Origin: Microbacterium proteolyticum
GTDB taxonomy: Bacteria > Actinomycetota > Actinomycetes > Actinomycetales > Microbacteriaceae
DNA: 64,000 nucleotides
Assembly (NCBI RefSeq): GCF_030818075.1
Contig: NZ_JAUSZZ010000001.1
Coordinates: forward strand, 3,100,001-3,164,000
Direction of reading: 5' to 3'
The notes under the pieces are model-generated. The model searched no databases, was not told the origin of the DNA, and saw nothing but the letters and a program-made list of their open reading frames with translations. The position numbers and the translations under genes are program-made. The stretch's first letter is position 1. Every line of letters begins with the position of its first letter. Shown piece by piece: positions 20,831 through 64,000 of this stretch.

Positions 20831-22633
20831 TCAGCCGAACTTGGGCAGTTCGGGGGTCGAGGTTCCGGAGGGGATGACCCGGTAGGTCTTGAGGACTTGC
20901 GTGAGGGCCTTCTGGAACGCGGGCGCGGTGGCCGCGGACGATTTTACCGTCCGCGGTTCGTCGAGGTTGACCTCCACCACGTACTGCGGGTCGTCGGCGG
21001 GGGCGAAACCGACCATGGTGGTGAAGTACGCGTCCGACTTGTAGGCGCCGGTGACGGGGTCGGTCTTCTCACCGGTACCGGTCTTGAGCGCGACGCGATA
21101 CCCCGGAATGGCGACCTGGTCGGCGAGCGTCCCCTGGGTCGCGACGTTCTCGAGCATCTGTGAGACCGTGCGGGCGGCATCCTCCGACACGACGCGCTCC
21201 CCCTGTGCGTCGGGCACGTCGGTGACCGTGCCGTCGGCGGCGGTGCAACTCTCGACGAGCGACAGCGGCATCCGCACGCCCCCGTTCGCGATGGTCTGAT
21301 AGGCCCCCGCGAGCTGGGGCACCGTCACGGCGAGGCCCTGGCCGAAGGTGGTGTTGTAGAAGGTCTGCTTGTCCCAGTCGGCCGGATCGCGCAGGATGCC
21401 GGACGACTCTCCCGGGAAGGCGACCGCCGTCTGCTCGGTGAGCCCGAACTTCTTCAGGTACGAGATGCGGGTGTCGAGCGGGATCATCTCGCCGAACTTC
21501 GAGATGCCGACATTGGAGGAGTCGATGAGCACGCCCGTGAGGGTGTAGCGGTTCTCGGGGTGCGAGAAGGAATCGGACACGCGGGCGCCATCGGGGAAGT
21601 TCTCACGCGACGACGCCGTCACGGTGGTCCCGGAGGTGAAGGCCCCGCTGTCGAGTCCGATGGCCGCGGTGATCGCCTTCATCGTCGAGCCCGGCTCGTG
21701 CGGGTCGCCGAAGGCGGCGCTGCCGCGATCGGACTCGGGCGTGGCCGTGGGGTCGTTGGGGTCGACGGTGGGGTACTCCGCCAGGGCCCGGATCTTCCCC
21801 GTCTTGGCCTCGACGACCGTGATGGTGCCGCGCAACGACCCGGTGTTCTGCACCTGCTCGGCGATGAGCTGGCCGAGGTACCACTGCAGGTCGCGGTCGA
21901 TGGTGAGTTTGAGGGTGCCGCCGTCGACCGCGGGCCGGGTCTCGGTCTCGGTGCCCGGCAGAACCACGCCGGACGGGCTCCGCTGGAAGACCATCTCGCC
22001 GTTGGTGGATGCCAGGCACGAGTCGTCCGCCGCTTCCAGGCCCGCGAGCGCCTGCCCGTCGCCGCCGACGAAACCGAGGAGGTTCCCGCCCACCGCACCG
22101 TCGGGATAGACCCGACCCGCCTGCGGCGGGAAGCTGAGGAACGGCAGTCCGAGGTCGGCGAGCGCCCGGTACTTCTCGGTCGAGACGCCCTTGGCGATGA
22201 CGGCGTACTGCGAGGAGGGGTCGTCGGCCACGGCATCCGTGACGATCTTCTGCACCTCGCTCTGCTCGATCCCCAGAACGGACGCGATGCGGCCCGCGAG
22301 GACGGGCCACGCGGTGGTGACCTTCTCGTCATCGTCGTCGTAGGTGGTGATGCCGTCGACGGCGAGGGACGGATCGATCTGCACGTCGTAGCGGTTGATG
22401 CTGGTGGCCAGCGGCGTGCCGTTCGCGTCGACGATCGGTCCGCGCGTGCCGTACAGCGTGCGCGAGGCCTCCAGCCCCATCGCCAGCGACTCGTCGACGT
22501 GGTCGCGCGCGTTGACGACCTGGATGTCGATCAACCGCACGACGAAGGCGATCAACACGATCAGCACGACCGCGAGGGCGACGACGGTGCGACGCCGCGG
22601 GGACCGGGAGGTGGCAGTCGTCATGGCTCTCAT
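20831..22633 (-). CDS. ftsI: FtsI/PBP2-type septal transpeptidase
   Basis: FtsI is the class B penicillin-binding protein that cross-links septal peptidoglycan with FtsW. The 600-residue protein has one N-terminal membrane helix (about 16-37), a pedestal domain with TRGPIVDANG, and a transpeptidase domain with all three active-site motifs: S316-T-M-K319, S372-S-N374 and K517-T-G-T520. No PASTA domain follows. The ATG at 22631-22633 overlaps the ftsL stop (ATGA). Confidence 0.95.
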   Translation of the reverse strand: MRAMTTATSRSPRRRTVVALAVVLIVLIAFVVRLIDIQVVNARDHVDESLAMGLEASRTLYGTRGPIVDANGTPLATSINRYDVQIDPSLAVDGITTYDDDDEKVTTAWPVLAGRIASVLGIEQSEVQKIVTDAVADDPSSQYAVIAKGVSTEKYRALADLGLPFLSFPPQAGRVYPDGAVGGNLLGFVGGDGQALAGLEAADDSCLASTNGEMVFQRSPSGVVLPGTETETRPAVDGGTLKLTIDRDLQWYLGQLIAEQVQNTGSLRGTITVVEAKTGKIRALAEYPTVDPNDPTATPESDRGSAAFGDPHEPGSTMKAITAAIGLDSGAFTSGTTVTASSRENFPDGARVSDSFSHPENRYTLTGVLIDSSNVGISKFGEMIPLDTRISYLKKFGLTEQTAVAFPGESSGILRDPADWDKQTFYNTTFGQGLAVTVPQLAGAYQTIANGGVRMPLSLVESCTAADGTVTDVPDAQGERVVSEDAARTVSQMLENVATQGTLADQVAIPGYRVALKTGTGEKTDPVTGAYKSDAYFTTMVGFAPADDPQYVVEVNLDEPRTVKSSAATAPAFQKALTQVLKTYRVIPSGTSTPELPKFG

Positions 22634-58089: not shown

Positions 58090-58095
58090 TAGACT
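58090..58095 (+). promoter_or_regulatory. Candidate -10 hexamer of the jet operon
   Basis: TAGACT is followed by seven bases and GTG at 58103. It resembles the housekeeping leaderless starts in this window. Confidence 0.45.
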
Positions 58096-58102
58096 CCCCT
58101 CA

Positions 58103-59578
58103 GTGACCCGCACCCGAGCCGAAGCCGCCTACCTGCGCTCGGTCACGGCGTTCAAGAACCCCACGCTCGACCTGCTGCACGGGCGGTTCGCCCCCTTCGT
58201 CGTGGCCGTGCTGTCCGTGGTGTTCTCACCCGATCGCCCCGCCGTGGCGGTCGCTGACGCGCACGTCGAGGTCGCCGAGGCGATCGACGAACTCCGGGCG
58301 GCCGGATACGACACAGACGACGACCGGCGCATCCCGGCGGGGTCGGCGCGCGACATCTGCCGCGGATGGGTGCGCGTGGGCTGGCTGGGTCTGCAGATCG
58401 AGGACGACGTCGAGGTGTATCGCCTGTCCGCGCACGCGGTCGGCGCGCTCGAGATCGCCGGTCGCGCCGGCGGCGGGCGGGCACGGGTGTCCCGCTCGCG
58501 CGTGCGGACCCTGCTCGACGCCGTCGAACGCCTCGCCCGTGACGCCGAGAGCGACCCGGTGCGCCGCCGCGAGGCGCTGCTGGAGGAGCGCGCGGCACTG
58601 GATGCCGAGATCGCGGCGCTCGACGACGGCATCGTCGAGCCGCTCGACGATGACCACCTGCTCGAGGAGGCCGAGAACGTCATCCATCTCGCGCGCGAGC
58701 TCCCCGCTGATTTCTCGCGCGTCGCCGAGTCGATCGCCGCGATGCAGCGCGACGTGGTCGCCGAGCTGCGTCGCGACGTGCGCCCCACCGGCGAGGTGCT
58801 CCGCGAGTATCTCGAGCGCGGCCGCCAGGTGATGCAGGCGACCCCCGAGGGCCGGGCGTTCGAGGGCGCGCTGCGCCTGATCGGCGATCCCGAGAACATC
58901 GACGACCTGACCGACCAGCTGCACGCCGTCCTGACGCAGCCGTTCTCGCGCCTCATGAGCGCCGAGCAGCGGAGCGAGCTGGATGCCATCGCCCGCCGCG
59001 TCGAAGCGGGTGTGCAGGAGGTGCTCACGGCTCAGCGGCGGGCCTCGCACGTCATCACCGCGCAGGTGCGAACGCACGACCCGATCCGCGACCGGCAGGT
59101 CGACGACCTGCTGCGCGGGGTCATGGCGGGACTGCACCGCTGGAGTCAGACCCGCTCCCCCGGGCGCGTGGAACCCGTGCGCACGCTGCCGCTCGCCGAC
59201 GTCGGGCACCTGCGGCAGTCCCTCAGCGACGTCCGACCTCCCGGAGCGCCGGAGCCGTTGGCATCCGACACCTCCGACGTCGAATTCGCGAGTGTCGACA
59301 CGCGCGCGTGGGGCGGTCCGCACTATGCCGAGCTGGAGGCGTACGTCGCGACCCTCGGCGACGGATTCGATCTCGCGGAGGCGTTCGCGGGGGCGGATGC
59401 CGAGACCCGGCGCCCCGTCGACCTGGTGGGCCTGCTCGAGATCGTGCACCGCCGGGGCCTGACGGAGACCGACGACGTCTCGATCGTGGAGACCGTGCGC
59501 CCGGACGGCACCAGGCGACGCTTCGCGTTCGGCGGAGTCCGAGCAGCACACCTCACAGAACAGGATGCCCATGACTGA
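58103..59578 (+). CDS. jetA: JetA, Wadjet kleisin-like subunit (DUF3375)
   Basis: JetA (MksF-like) is a kleisin/winged-helix subunit of the Wadjet complex, which recognises and helps cleave circular plasmid DNA. The 491-residue protein starts with [35 protein letters not shown], the DUF3375 N-terminus, followed by a helical middle (about 150-330) with [15 protein letters not shown] and [14 protein letters not shown], and a C-terminal winged-helix region ending with [14 protein letters not shown]. The length fits type I JetA. It overlaps jetB by 14 bases and begins a jetABC operon. No mutation is seen. Confidence 0.9.
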
Positions 59579-60512
59579 CGTGCAGACCCCGGGCACCGAC
59601 GCCGAGAACCGCGCGTTCATCGCCCCGGTCGCGATGGAGAACGACCCCGACGCGCTGTTCGCCGGTGACCGCGGCACCCTCGACGCCGAGGTACGGCGCG
59701 TGCTCGTGCGGATCCTCCAGCGCCGGTTCCTCCTCGCCGAGAACTCCCCCGTCGAGTGGAAGCTCCTGCTCGAGCACCAGCAGATGATCGAGTCGCGGCT
59801 GAACGACCTGTTCGTGCGGCTCGTCGTCGACCACGCGCGCGGCGTCGCCTACAAGGAGCAGGTGCGCAGCGACGAGCTCGACGTGCCGATCCTGCTCAAG
59901 GACGAGGCGTATTCCCGCGCCGAGACCCTGGTGCTGGTGTACCTGCGGACGGTCTTCCAGCGCGAGACGACCGCGGGGACGGCATCCGCCCGGGTCGACG
60001 TGGAGGAGGTCGAGCAGACTGTGCTGACCTACTTCAGCGAGAGCGACGGCACGCGCGCGAGCCAGCAGCGTGCCGTGCGCACCGCGATCGCGCGCCTCGA
60101 CCGCGAGGGCATCATCGAGGAGGAGTCCGAGGGGCGTTTCCGCATCGGGCCGCTCATCGAGATCGTGCTCAGCGCCGAGACGCTGCGCGAGCTGCAGAAA
60201 TGGCTGGACGAGCAGACACAGGATGCCGAGACGCCGGCGGCGCGTGAGCCGGAGCTCCCGGCATCCGGGGCTCCCGGTGACCGCACAGCGGACCCCGAGG
60301 CCTCACCCCAGGGCGATGCTCCGGCATCCGAGGCTCCCGGTGCCGGCACAGGCGAAATTCCCGAGGCCTCACCCCAGGGCGATGCTCCGGCATCCGGGGC
60401 TCCCGGTGCCCGCACAGCCGACCCCGAGACCTCACCCCAGGGCGATGCTCCGGCATCCGGGGTTCCCGGTGCCCGCACAGCCGAGATTTCCGAGAAGGAC
60501 CTTCTCTCATGA
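59565..60512 (+). CDS. jetB: JetB, Wadjet KITE-like subunit (DUF4194), with a repetitive tail
   Basis: JetB (MksE-like) is the small winged-helix partner of JetA and JetC. The conserved DUF4194 core spans about 30-220, with [39 protein letters not shown] and [19 protein letters not shown]. After residue 225 the protein ends in about 90 residues of disordered Pro/Ala/Ser/Gly repeats, absent from usual JetB proteins of about 200-230 residues. An ATG two codons on (59571) has better spacing from AGG and may be the true start. It overlaps jetC by four bases (ATGA). Confidence 0.9.
60294..60488 (+). repeat. In-frame repeats coding the JetB tail
   Basis: Three copies (66, 63 and 66 bp) start at 60294, 60360 and 60423. 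Each encodes about 21-22 residues of the form [19 protein letters not shown]. A partial copy lies just before. Because all unit lengths are multiples of three, copy number can change without frameshift. Confidence 0.9.
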
Positions 60513-63500
60513 CCATGCTCGAGACCCTCTTCGGGCTCATCCCCGCCGCGTCCCGCGGGCAGCAGTGGGTGGCCGAAGACCTGCAACTCATCAACTGGGG
60601 CGGGTACGACGGCACGCACCGCGTGCGCTTCGCGCCGACGGCGACGCTGCTGTGCGGTGGTTCCGGGTCGGGGAAGTCGACGCTCATGGACGCCTACGTG
60701 GCGCTGATGATGCCGCACACGACCCCCTTCAACGGGGCGTCGAACGGGGCGGTGGTGGGGCGTCCGCGCGGGCAGGAGCAGCGCAACATCCTCTCGTACG
60801 GCCGCGGCAAGCTCGATGAGGCGCTGACCGACGAGGGCACGAAAGTACGCGTGCTGCGCGGCGACGGCGTCGACACGTGGACGGCGATCGCCATGACGTG
60901 GGCCGATCACGACGGTTCCCGCTTCACCGCGGTGCGGGCGTGGTACATCCCGGCGGCGGCGCGCACGCTGGACGACGCGGTCAAGGTGCGGGCCACCGTG
61001 CACGGGGCGTTCGATCTGCGCCGGCTCGAACGCGCGGCGCAGAGCCACCTGTCCGACTCCGCGGTGCGGGCGACGGGTCTGGACACCCTCGCGACCGACC
61101 GCGAGTTCTCGGCACGGCTGCACGCGGTGCTCGGCATCGGGGCCGCCGGGGCCGGGTCGAAGGCGATGAGCCTGCTCGCGCGCATCCAGGCCGGGCAGCA
61201 GATCACCACGGTCGACGACCTGTACAAGCGCATGGTGCTCGAGGAGCCCGAGACGCTCGCGGTGGCCGACGCGGTGGTGTCGCACTTCGACGGTCTGGAG
61301 GGCACGCGGACGCGCATGGTCGAGGCGCGCCAGCAGGTGCGCGCGCTGCAGCCGATCCGCGCCATGAAGACGCGGATCGACGAGGCCGCCGAGCGGCTGC
61401 GCCTCATCGACGCCCTGGGGCGCTTCGGCGACCCCGAGTCGCGCGCCTCGCTCTGGCGCGCGCAGCGGCGGGTGGACCTGCTCGGCGCGGTCGAAGACGA
61501 GCTGCGCGAGCGCACGCACGCCACCGACGCCCTCGTGCGCGAACGGCAGGCCCTCGCGGATGCGGCCGAAGCGGAGCGCGAGGGGCTCGGCGACGTGCTG
61601 CGCGCGGCCGGCGGCGACCGACTCGACGCGGCGCAGCGCGAACTCCGGGGGCTCGAGAGGCGTCTGGCGGGCATGCAACGCGACCGCGAGCGGTTCGAGG
61701 CGGCAGTGTCTGTTCTGCACGCGGAGGCGACCTCGGAGAAGCAGTTCAACGCGCTGCTCACCGAAGCCCGCAACACCCTGAGCGACAGAGACGGCAAGAC
61801 CGCCGTGCGCGACGCGTTCGTGGCCGCGAGCAGTCGGCACACCGAGCTGCGCCAGCGGCTCGCCGCTCTCGAGACCGAGCACCGCCGCACCCAGACACGC
61901 GACGACAACATCCCGCCCCGGCTGCACGAGGCCCGCGAGGCGCTGGCCGAGGCCGCCGGGCTGACCGCGGCGGAGCTGCCGTTCGTCGCTGAGCTGGTCG
62001 ACGTCCGCACCGAGTACGAGCCGTGGCGCGGGGCGTTCACGCTGGCGCTGGGCGGTTTCGCGACGACGTTGCTCGTGGATGACGCGCACCTGGCATCCTT
62101 CCGCTCCGCCATCGACGGCGTGCGGCTCGGCGAGCGGCTGCGGTTCGAAGGTGTGTCGACGGGGCTGCCCGAGCGTACGGGGCTGGATCCCGCGACGCTG
62201 CCGGGGCGCCTGGAGTACCGGCGCTCCCCCTTCACCGGGTGGCTGAAAGACCGGCTCGAACAGCAGTTCGCCTTCGTGTGCGTGGACTCGTCGGCCGAGC
62301 TGGCACGCCACCGTCTGGCGCTGAGCATCTCGGGCCAGACGAGTCAGGGCTCGCGCGGTGCGCACGGCGGATCCACCCGCACCAGTGTGCTGGGCTTCTC
62401 GTCGCGCGTGCGCCTGACCGAGCTCGGCGAGCAGATCGTCACGGTTCGCCGCGACCTCGCGTCCGCGAAAGCCGCGGTCGACGAGGCCGCCGCGGCCCTC
62501 GACGCGTTCGACGAGCGACGCAGCGCCCTCGAGAAGATCGCCGACCTGTCGTGGGACCAGGTCGATGTGGCATCCGTTCAGCGCGAACTCGAGCGCTGGA
62601 ACGAGACCGTCGTCGAGATCACCGCCGGCAACCCGCGCATCGCGGAGTTGCAGGAGCAGATCTCGGGCACGCGCGTGCGCGCCGCGCGGCTGCGGGAGGA
62701 GATCGGCGCGGCCAAGACCGAGCAGCGGACCCTCGCCGCCCGCTGGGCGGAGGTCACGGACGACGTGGACAGTTCCCACGAGCGGCTGGAGCGCGCAGAG
62801 GATCTGGGGGTGTCGCTCTCGCCCGAGGAGTCCGCGTACCTGGACGGACTGTTCGTGGCGCCCGCCGGGGAGGCCTCGACGCCGTCGCAGGTCCTCGCGC
62901 GGTTCGACGCCGCCCTGGAGAGCGCCTCCCGCCTGCTGCTCGAGGAACAGCGCTCGGCGCAGGAGACCTGGGCCGACCAGCGCGACGGCCTGCGGCGGAC
63001 GCTCACCGCGTTCATCGACCGGTGGCCGAGCCCCAACCTGCTCGCCGACCCCGACGAGTCTCTTGGCGACTTCGAGCGGATCCTCGCCGACCTGGAGACG
63101 AGCGGTCTGCACGAGCTGGAGGCGGAGTGGCGTGATTCGCTGCTGCGGCTGTCGGGGAACGACCTCACCAGCCTCGACTCCGCGCTCACGCGGGCGATGC
63201 GGGAGATCCGCGAGCGGATCGCGCCGATCAACGACATCATGCGGGACCTGCCGTTCTACGACGACGAGCATCGGCTGCAGATCGTTCCGCGCGAGGGTCA
63301 GTCGGAGGTGCGTCGCCGGTTCCGCCGCGAGCTGCGCGACGTGCGGGCCGCGATCGACGCGGCATCCTCCGACGAGGAGCGCGAAGCCGTCTACGGCCGC
63401 ATGGCGCGGCTGATCGGGCGGATCCGTCCGACCGCTCCCGATTTCGCCGACCTCGTCGACGTGCGCAATCACGTGCGGGTCAGTGCCGAGCGCTTCCGCG

Positions 63501-63862
63501 CCGACACCGGGGAGCACGTCGCCCTGTACGACCACATCGGCGAGAAGTCCGGCGGCGAGTCGCAGGAGCTCATCGCGTTCATCGTCGGCGCCGCCCTGCG
63601 GTATCAGCTGGGGGATGCCGGAGCCGAGCGGCCGCGGTACGCCCCGGTGTTCCTCGACGAGGCGCTCATCAAGGCCGACGCGCACTTCACCAAGCGCGCG
63701 ATCGGCGCGTGGCGGGGCCTGGGCTTCCAGCTCGTCATCGGTGCGCCGAACGACAAGTACAGCGCGATCGAGCCGCACGTCGACGTGGAGTACGACATCT
63801 TGAAGGACACGCGCGGGCGGTCGTGGGCGAAGGCGAAGGTGGGGGTCGCTGAGCACGCGTGA
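60509..63862 (+). CDS. jetC: JetC, Wadjet SMC/MukB-like ATPase
   Basis: JetC is the SMC-type motor that extrudes DNA loops so that plasmids are detected. The 1117-residue protein has Walker A GGSGSGKS at 50-57, two long coiled-coil arms (about 220-460 and 620-920), a hinge-like region (about 480-610; [17 protein letters not shown]), the ABC signature SGGES at 1014-1018 and Walker B VFLDEA with D1050 and E1051. All residues needed for ATP hydrolysis are retained. Its final codons run into a 22-bp repeat array. The JetD nuclease would be expected next, outside the window. Confidence 0.92.
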
Positions 63863-64000
63863 AAGGGTTGCCGGTCACGCGTGAGATGGTCGCGGGGCTT
63901 GCGTGAGATGGTGGCGCGGCTTGCGTGAGATAGTCGCGCGACTTGCGTGAGATGGTCGCCGGTCACGCGTGCGACAGTCGTGCGGCTTGCGTGTGATGGT
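63854..64000. repeat. Array of 22-bp repeats beginning on the jetC stop codon and leaving the window
   Basis: Six full units start at 63854, 63876, 63898, 63920, 63942 and 63964, and a partial one at 63986. The consensus is GCGTGAGATGGTCGC within a 22-bp period, alternating CACGCGTG and CTTGCGTG starts. The jetC stop TGA (63860-63862) lies in unit 1. The units are adjacent with no variable spacers, so this is a minisatellite, not CRISPR. Confidence 0.93.

What the first reader, a model, noticed from the sequence alone, without database searches (positions are those of the whole stretch)
58103..63862. Complete jetABC of a type I Wadjet anti-plasmid system at the right edge
Seen: three overlapping genes with DUF3375, DUF4194 and SMC-type ATPase features, in the order jetA-jetB-jetC, with intact Walker A, signature and Walker B in JetC. 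Known: JetABCD (Wadjet, relative of MksBEF/G) cleaves plasmid DNA. Inference: this is a functional defence island start, provided jetD follows. It sits after housekeeping genes with no phage or transposon nearby, so it may be an old insertion.
Basis: partly seen in the sequence, partly recalled or inferred. Interest (0 to 1): 0.75.

Follow-up and report, generated by a model that had tools for sequence, protein, structure and literature searches.

The report
Plasmid-defence motor lacking its nuclease
A soil bacterium carries the three DNA-motor genes of a known anti-plasmid system but not the gene for its DNA-cutting enzyme; many related species share this cut-down version under strong selection, so the motor probably has a job that does not need that cutter.

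Summary
In detail: jetA (58103-59578), jetB (59565-60512) and jetC (60509-63862) are intact, overlapping and clearly Wadjet type I. The anti-plasmid reading fails its own test. Past the window edge lie a tandem array, a membrane-type protein, a DUF222 gene and an antiporter, but no jetD, and jetD models find nothing in this one-contig, 99.95% complete genome. This is not a local accident. Of 295 congeneric genomes, 105 carry this class of JetA and 89 of those have no JetD anywhere. All 30 genomes nearest the window (itself included) carry it; 2 of the next 30 do. ATPase motifs are kept in 117 of 117 jetD-less loci examined, jetC dN/dS is 0.04-0.135 in 24 chosen pairs, and a start-adjacent promoter-like box is identical in 27 of 27 loci of the window's clade. 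JetD was probably ancestral: relics survive in a few relatives, surviving JetDs track JetC, and the tree implies 17-21 losses (7 changes if re-gain is allowed). Smc-ScpAB coexists. Best reading: a disarmed, chromosomally resident Wadjet core acting as an accessory nuclease-free SMC complex (MksBEF-like). Its biological job is inferred. New variant of a known kind.

The parts
58090..58095 (+). TAGACT box (-10-like), 7 nt before the jetA GTG; consistent with a leaderless transcript
   Evidence: GGTAGACT at the same distance from GTG in 27 of 27 loci of the window's clade, while DNA further upstream varies. The generic sigma-70 scan found no site. 'Leaderless' is inference.
58103..59578 (+). jetA (DUF3375, kleisin subunit), 491 aa
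59565..60512 (+). jetB (DUF4194, KITE subunit), 315 aa
59616..59684 (+). JetB residues 18-40: conserved N-terminal peptide [23 protein letters not shown] in an otherwise variable tail
   Evidence: FI.P..ME-type pattern in 82 of 118 JetBs without a visible neighbouring jetD (one of the 118, L194, is cut by a contig end) and 5 of 22 with jetD.GD.G part in 113 of 118 and 14 of 22
60258..60494 (+). 63-bp tandem repeats (3.6 copies) extending the JetB C-terminus
60509..63862 (+). jetC (SMC-like ATPase), 1117 aa
60656..60679 (+). JetC Walker A (GGSGSGKS)
   Evidence: read; pattern kept in 117 of 117 jetD-less loci
63548..63559 (+). JetC ABC signature (SGGE)
   Evidence: read
63647..63661 (+). JetC Walker B (VFLDE)
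   Evidence: read
63879..64000 (.). start of a 22-bp x 17 tandem array, where jetD would be expected; it runs on past the window to about 64255

Best explanation
A Wadjet type I core (JetA kleisin, JetB KITE, JetC ATPase) that has lost its JetD nuclease and become a resident, selected, three-subunit SMC complex. Mechanism: JetABC assembles and uses ATP to translocate on and extrude loops of DNA, as Wadjet cores do (inferred from intact motifs and homology), but the terminal cutting step is missing. The most likely role is accessory DNA maintenance on the host chromosome beside Smc-ScpAB, like the P. aeruginosa MksBEF complex (inferred). Shown here: gene identity, no detectable jetD, intact motifs, purifying selection, presence in every sampled genome of the window's clade, and jetD relics in a few relatives. 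Not shown: complex assembly, extrusion, any cellular function.
For: No jetD in the genome. 105 of 295 congeners carry this JetA class, 89 of them with no JetD anywhere; the 27 high-scoring JetA loci all lie in genomes with JetD. 30 of 30 nearest genomes carry it against 2 of the next 30. Motifs kept in 117 of 117. jetC dN/dS 0.038-0.135 in 24 jetD-less pairs. Start-adjacent promoter-like box identical in 27 of 27. jetD relics: L081 broken, L094 internally deleted, L284 split in two frames. JetD and JetC identities track each other, rho 0.72 in 8 members. No conserved fourth gene in 101 loci of about 17 kb. ScpA in 288 of 295 and in the own genome. No close relative on plasmids or phages. The review PMC10586767 says P. 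[quoted passage not shown]
Against: The closest studied relative with the nuclease, C. glutamicum MksBEFG, has no effect on chromosome folding and acts on plasmids only (PMC7083940), so the core may not act on chromosomes. Outside the window's clade the distribution is patchy (75 of 265 with this class), unlike a core condensin. Within the clade JetC identity to the window does not follow a cell-division marker (rho 0.29, p 0.14, n 26), so exchange between species is possible. The JetB N-terminal peptide, a candidate nuclease-contact region, is retained, which hints that something may still dock there. Re-gain of jetD by a few lineages is not excluded.
Confidence: 0.5

Rival explanations
1. 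Non-cutting plasmid control: JetABC still recognises small circular DNA by extruding it completely, then blocks its replication, transcription or segregation without cleaving it (comparable to what is proposed for Smc5/6 on viral circles; partly recalled).
For: The only activity shown for the actinobacterial four-subunit complex in the papers seen is on plasmids. Patchy distribution outside the clade fits a defence gene. Repeated jetD loss with the core retained would fit a cheaper, less toxic version (inference).
Against: In C. glutamicum, null alleles of mksG, mksB and mksF similarly raise the copy number of one plasmid (pBHK18; not pJC1), so there the core without nuclease gives no such protection. 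Presence in 30 of 30 nearest genomes is unusual for a defence gene.
Confidence: 0.22
2. JetABC recruits a different nuclease or topoisomerase encoded elsewhere, docking at the conserved JetB N-terminal peptide in place of JetD.
For: The peptide is conserved in a variable tail and kept in jetD-less lineages. The review reports JetD crosslinks to an N-terminal JetB motif.
Against: The peptide is also present in jetD-bearing members of the same clade (L100, L174, L177, L182), so it is not specific to a new partner. No conserved neighbour gene. The equivalence of the published motif and this peptide was not tested.
Confidence: 0.15
3. A jetD is present but too diverged for the models, so this is an ordinary Wadjet.
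For: JetD evolves faster than JetC (42-58% against 67-75% identity among four clade members). The search with the 14-member JetD alignment had no positive control.
Against: Two Pfam models that ring in C. glutamicum find nothing in the own genome; PF09983 does find JetDs of the same JetC clade in other genomes at 109-113 bits. In up to 2.5 kb after jetC of 115 jetD-less loci only L094 shows a relic above the level of the shuffled control.
Confidence: 0.05
4. A decaying remnant of a dead defence system.
For: jetD is gone; JetB is split or short in 3 of 117 jetD-less loci (L103, L178, L206).
Against: Low dN/dS, motifs kept in 117 of 117, invariant promoter-like box in 27 of 27, presence in 30 of 30 nearest genomes.
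Confidence: 0.03

Closest known systems
Wadjet type I (JetABCD / MksBEFG / EptABCD)
   Same: JetA, JetB and JetC families, gene order and overlaps, ATPase motifs, homology to solved JetABC cores.
   Different: No JetD nuclease, the executing subunit; present in every sampled genome of the window's clade rather than scattered.
MksBEF of Pseudomonas aeruginosa (nuclease-free MukBEF-like condensin)
   Same: Three-subunit nuclease-free SMC complex coexisting with Smc-ScpAB; thought to have arisen by JetD loss (passage).
   Different: Our JetB matches DUF4194 far better than MksE (130 against 32 bits). A chromosome role is not shown here. JetD loss in this lineage looks separate and repeated; direct comparison with PAO1 MksB was not made.
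MukBEF of E. coli
   Same: Same general architecture (recalled).
   Different: JetC matches MukB chains only weakly (20 bits against 158 for JetC chains).

Membership tests
Wadjet type I | JetA with DUF3375 | tested here: met
   366 bits, PADLOC JetA1 721 bits
Wadjet type I | JetB with DUF4194 | tested here: met
   130 bits, PADLOC JetB1 377 bits
Wadjet type I | JetC SMC-like ATPase with Walker A, signature, Walker B | tested here: met
Wadjet type I | Overlapping jetA-jetB-jetC operon | tested here: met
   coordinates
Wadjet type I | JetD Toprim nuclease (DUF3322 + DUF2220/JetD_C) | tested here: not met
   0 matches in the own genome with PF09983 and PF11795, both of which ring in the control C. 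glutamicum; 0 with a 14-member JetD alignment at E<=10, a search without a control
Wadjet type I | Restricts circular plasmids by cleavage | not testable with these tools
   needs experiment
MksBEF-type condensin | Three-gene SMC operon without nuclease | tested here: met
MksBEF-type condensin | MksE-like KITE subunit | tested here: inconclusive
   PF21980 31.8 bits, just over its cut-off of 27, but DUF4194 scores 130
MksBEF-type condensin | Stable chromosomal residence in the lineage | tested here: inconclusive
   30 of 30 nearest genomes, but 75 of the other 265 in the genus
MksBEF-type condensin | Contributes to chromosome organisation | not testable with these tools
   needs experiment
MksBEF-type condensin | Sequence closer to P. 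aeruginosa PAO1 MksB than to JetC | not tested
   no PAO1 MksB was fetched

The most novel reading that the evidence does not exclude
Wadjet is repeatedly disarmed: across Microbacteriaceae and into Corynebacterium, Tessaracoccus and Actinomyces the nuclease has been lost many times while the motor is kept, and in one species group the disarmed form is in every sampled genome. The naked motor either controls circular DNA without cutting it or has become a second condensin, making this a natural replicated experiment in how a defence complex turns into a genome-maintenance machine.
Probability: 0.4. Interest if true: 0.8.

Novelty: new variant of a known kind. Interest (0 to 1): 0.58.

Why it matters
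How SMC complexes move between immunity and chromosome maintenance is open: the review PMC10586767 calls the origin of Wadjet and its relation to other SMC complexes unresolved and offers JetD loss only as a likely origin of P. aeruginosa MksBEF (passages). Here the loss can be read in relics, a close pair with and without jetD exists (L174/L175), and one species group has the disarmed form in every sampled genome. That makes the question testable in soil bacteria that are easy to handle (recalled). Practically, a Wadjet call from jetABC alone would wrongly predict plasmid cleavage in these species.

Tried and rejected
A close orthologue (88%) was found only in G171, which has jetABC; the best among the other 18 was 64% (G265). 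No empty site could be defined, so this is inconclusive.

Alternative effector next door: genes of 101 loci (own plus 100 of the genus; the 40 loci of other genera were not included) were called with a home-made codon-usage caller and clustered. jetA, jetB and jetC are in 100, 99 and 100 loci; the next cluster is in 24. The DUF222 gene is in a cluster of 10 loci and was rejected as a general effector.

JetB N-terminal motif as a marker of a new partner: rejected as specific, because jetD-bearing members of the same clade also have it. Whether it equals the published IFDR motif was not tested.

Gain rather than loss of jetD: not excluded (7 changes by Fitch against 17-21 losses by Dollo). Loss is preferred because of the relics and because JetDs of one clade resemble each other (42-58%) more than those of the other (29-34%).

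JetA-ScpA distance: 22-106 kb in the genomes of the window's clade for which both positions were listed on one contig, 9-76 kb in seven genomes of another clade, but about 0.7-1.2 Mb in six other one-contig genomes.

Counting choices: JetA fragments and sub-cut-off matches (G172 in two pieces, G281, G044, G098, G200, second pieces in G007, G028, G102, and G001, G052, G078, G250) were left out of the 137 full-length matches. JetD_C counts include short fragments (for example G106, 51 aa), so 'no JetD' is conservative. Nine genomes with poor marker matches (G044, G091, G132, G151, G163, G184, G251, G253, G281) could not be ranked. Tree rows dropped: L109 and L194 (cut by contig ends) and L157 (jetC in two pieces). 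dN/dS pairs were picked by me from close sisters. In one search the pair L102/L165 was labelled mixed because a second operon in L165 has jetD; its own operon is jetD-less and I counted it so. A first JetD profile contained seeds read on the wrong strand and gave antisense hits; it was rebuilt. (679 proteins at E<=1e-50, capped list) and passages of PMC12287153 were seen but not used. No structure prediction was run.

Full report
WHAT IS THERE. The three genes are real and intact: jetA 58103-59578, jetB 59565-60512, jetC 60509-63862, all on the plus strand with short overlaps. Pfam gives DUF3375 (366 bits), DUF4194 (130 bits), and AAA_29 plus SbcC_Walker_B. PADLOC names them JetA1, JetB1 and JetC1 with 721, 377 and 1701 bits. 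Solved Wadjet cores match by sequence: JetC 8dk2 at E 2.5e-45 and 8as8 at 2.4e-44, JetB 8dk1 at 1.7e-9, JetA 8q72 at 1.1e-13. MukB chains match only weakly (20 bits).

WHAT FOLLOWS. The window is G000:C1:3100001-3164000 of a one-contig genome of 3.77 Mb, 99.95% complete. Beyond jetC come a 22-bp tandem array of 17 copies, then on the minus strand a 214-aa protein without a Pfam match and a DUF222 protein, then on the plus strand a GntR/aminotransferase-type regulator and a sodium/proton exchanger. None of the four matches a PADLOC model (the regulator was given there in a longer reading). No jetD: PF09983 and PF11795 give no match in the genome, while both ring in the control Corynebacterium glutamicum. 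A profile of 14 JetD proteins from relatives also gives none at E up to 10, but that search has no positive control.

HOW COMMON. In 295 genomes of the genus, DUF3375 exceeds its cut-off in 131 and JetD_C in 40. Leaving out fragments (listed under Tried and rejected), there are 137 full-length JetA matches in 126 genomes, which I split by score. The 27 high-scoring loci are all in genomes with JetD. The 105 middle-scoring loci, which include the window, are in 105 genomes, of which 89 have no JetD anywhere and 16 do, some of these only as a fragment or with another jetA operon. The 5 low-scoring ones are all in genomes with JetD. In 249 genomes of the family, DUF3375 exceeds its cut-off in 58 and JetD_C in 26.

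LOCI. I took up to about 17 kb around 140 jetA loci chosen from those two surveys, plus the window's own: 100 from the genus (88 middle-scoring, 9 high-scoring L143-L151, 3 low-scoring L140-L142) and 40 from other genera. Of the 141, 117 have jetC and no intact jetD for that operon (115 with no JetD profile match, L081 with a broken one, and L165, whose JetD belongs to a second operon); 22 have jetD; 2 (L109, L194) are cut by a contig end. By simple patterns, Walker A, signature and Walker B are kept in 117 of 117 jetD-less JetCs; the exception among jetD-bearing loci is L157, whose jetC is broken. JetA and JetC are each covered at least 75% by one ORF in all 117; JetB fails in L103, L178 and L206.

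NAMED RELATIVES. A search with the window's JetC in the named genome collection found 131 relatives, of which the best 79 distinct loci were kept (64-93% identity): Microbacterium (M. testaceum, M. enclense, M. proteolyticum and others), Leucobacter, Tessaracoccus, Corynebacterium, Gulosibacter, Agromyces, Schumannella, Arenivirga, Frigoribacterium, Actinomyces and unnamed actinobacteria. The list is ranked by similarity to a jetD-less JetC and so is biased towards its kin; it overlaps in part with the unnamed loci. Of 75 with at least 1.5 kb after jetC, 72 have no jetD and 3 do: Schumannella soli intact, Microbacterium helvum broken, Agromyces humi split in two frames. I asked for whole-genome JetD in 30 of the 79; 29 were held; 22 of 29 have none anywhere.

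SELECTION. Nei-Gojobori dN/dS of jetC is 0.038-0.135 in 24 jetD-less pairs that I picked among close sisters. jetA is 0.028-0.201 and jetB 0.035-0.331 in the same pairs. Four pairs with jetD on at least one side have jetC 0.106-0.211. In all 27 fetched loci of the window's clade an identical GGTAGACT lies at a fixed distance from the GTG of jetA while sequence further upstream differs. This looks like a -10 element of a leaderless transcript (inference; the generic promoter scan finds nothing).

FIXATION. I ranked the 295 genomes by identity to the window's penicillin-binding transpeptidase in the cell-division gene cluster (window 20831-22624; Pfam). Thirty genomes, the window's included, have 75% or more, then there is a gap to 67%; nine genomes with poor marker matches could not be ranked. 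All 30 carry the middle-class JetA, against 2 of the next 30 and 75 of the other 265 in all. JetD_C occurs in 2 of the 30 (G167, G248), each of which has a further jetA operon. In 21 of 27 fetched loci of this clade the sodium/proton exchanger lies downstream. Against strict vertical descent, JetC identity to the window does not follow the marker (rho 0.29, p 0.14, n 26). On plasmids 15 of 72,556 records match, all under 60% identity, and on phages one of 50,697, partially.

HOW JETD WENT. In the JetC tree (138 rows, quick method, several long branches flagged) a clade of 121 rows contains the window and 113 of the 117 jetD-less loci; the other four (L207-L210) lie outside it. Within the 121, eight jetD-bearing rows are scattered singly or in small groups. 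With the relic loci L081 and L094 counted as carriers (so their own losses are not in the count), Dollo parsimony needs 21 losses in this clade, or 17 with weak forks merged; free gain and loss needs 7 changes. Loss is favoured by relics: L081 has jetD in two pieces, and L094 keeps 35 bp of the start and 73 bp near the end with the middle missing, relative to its sister L100. Other hits in that search (L096, L112, L133, L200) are weak; the shuffled control gave one weak hit in each of its two searches. Surviving JetDs resemble each other within a clade (42-58%) more than between clades (29-34%), and JetD identity tracks JetC identity (rho 0.72 for 8 members, 0.85 for 21; pairs are not independent).

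WHAT IT LIKELY DOES. ScpA is found in 288 of 295 genomes, the window's included, so JetABC is a second SMC complex and not a replacement. C. glutamicum MksBEFG does not shape the chromosome and acts on plasmids (PMC7083940, abstract and passages); there MksG (JetD) is needed for the effect (PMC10123090, section 26) and binds the kleisin MksF (PMC10123090, passages). A nuclease-free core therefore probably does something else. The review PMC10586767 (passages) notes that P. aeruginosa MksBEF, which does act on the chromosome, likely arose by loss of JetD. I take the window's complex to be a parallel, actinobacterial case (about 0.5), with non-cutting plasmid control second (0.22). No tool here can show either.

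IN PRINT. Searches for Wadjet/JetD/JetABC, MksBEF/MksG, JetD/JetB/JetA, MksB/condensin/Actinobacteria (20 of 29 papers listed), Wadjet/Microbacterium, phrases for JetD loss and MksG-less forms (12 of 26 listed) showed no paper whose title or start of abstract reports a jetD-less JetABC in Actinobacteria. The phrase search found only the review's remark. The library lacks most subscription papers and preprints, so this is weak evidence of novelty.

VERDICT. Confirmed observation; the anti-plasmid inference fails for lack of jetD. It is a new variant of a known kind: a disarmed Wadjet core, under selection and present in every sampled genome of one species group.

Noticed in passing
63879-64000 and on to about 64255 (L009 7880-8256): A 22-bp x 17 tandem array directly after jetC. 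Several relatives of the same clade have different tandem arrays at or near this spot (for example L102, L103, L112, L164, L167, L169), while 13 of 27 have none in the 1.5 kb after jetC.
   Followed up: partly
60258-60494: In-frame 63-bp repeats lengthen the JetB C-terminus to 315 aa, against 221-284 aa in the other window-clade JetBs listed.
   Followed up: no
L165 3999-17013: A jetD-less jetABC operon is followed directly by a second, divergent jetABC operon with its own jetD, in the same orientation.
   Followed up: partly
L174 and L175: Two closely related operons of one genus (92% identical DNA over jetABC), one with and one without jetD; continuous homology stops at the end of jetC. A natural pair for experiments.
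   Followed up: partly
L157: The reverse case: jetD present and jetC in two ORFs.
   Followed up: no
G000:C1:3193065-3193727: scpA lies 34 kb from jetA. In the window's clade the distance is 22-106 kb where both were listed on one contig, 9-76 kb in seven genomes of another clade, but about 0.7-1.2 Mb in six other one-contig genomes.
   Followed up: partly
59616-59684: The conserved JetB N-terminal peptide is kept in lineages without jetD; what it binds is unknown.
   Followed up: partly
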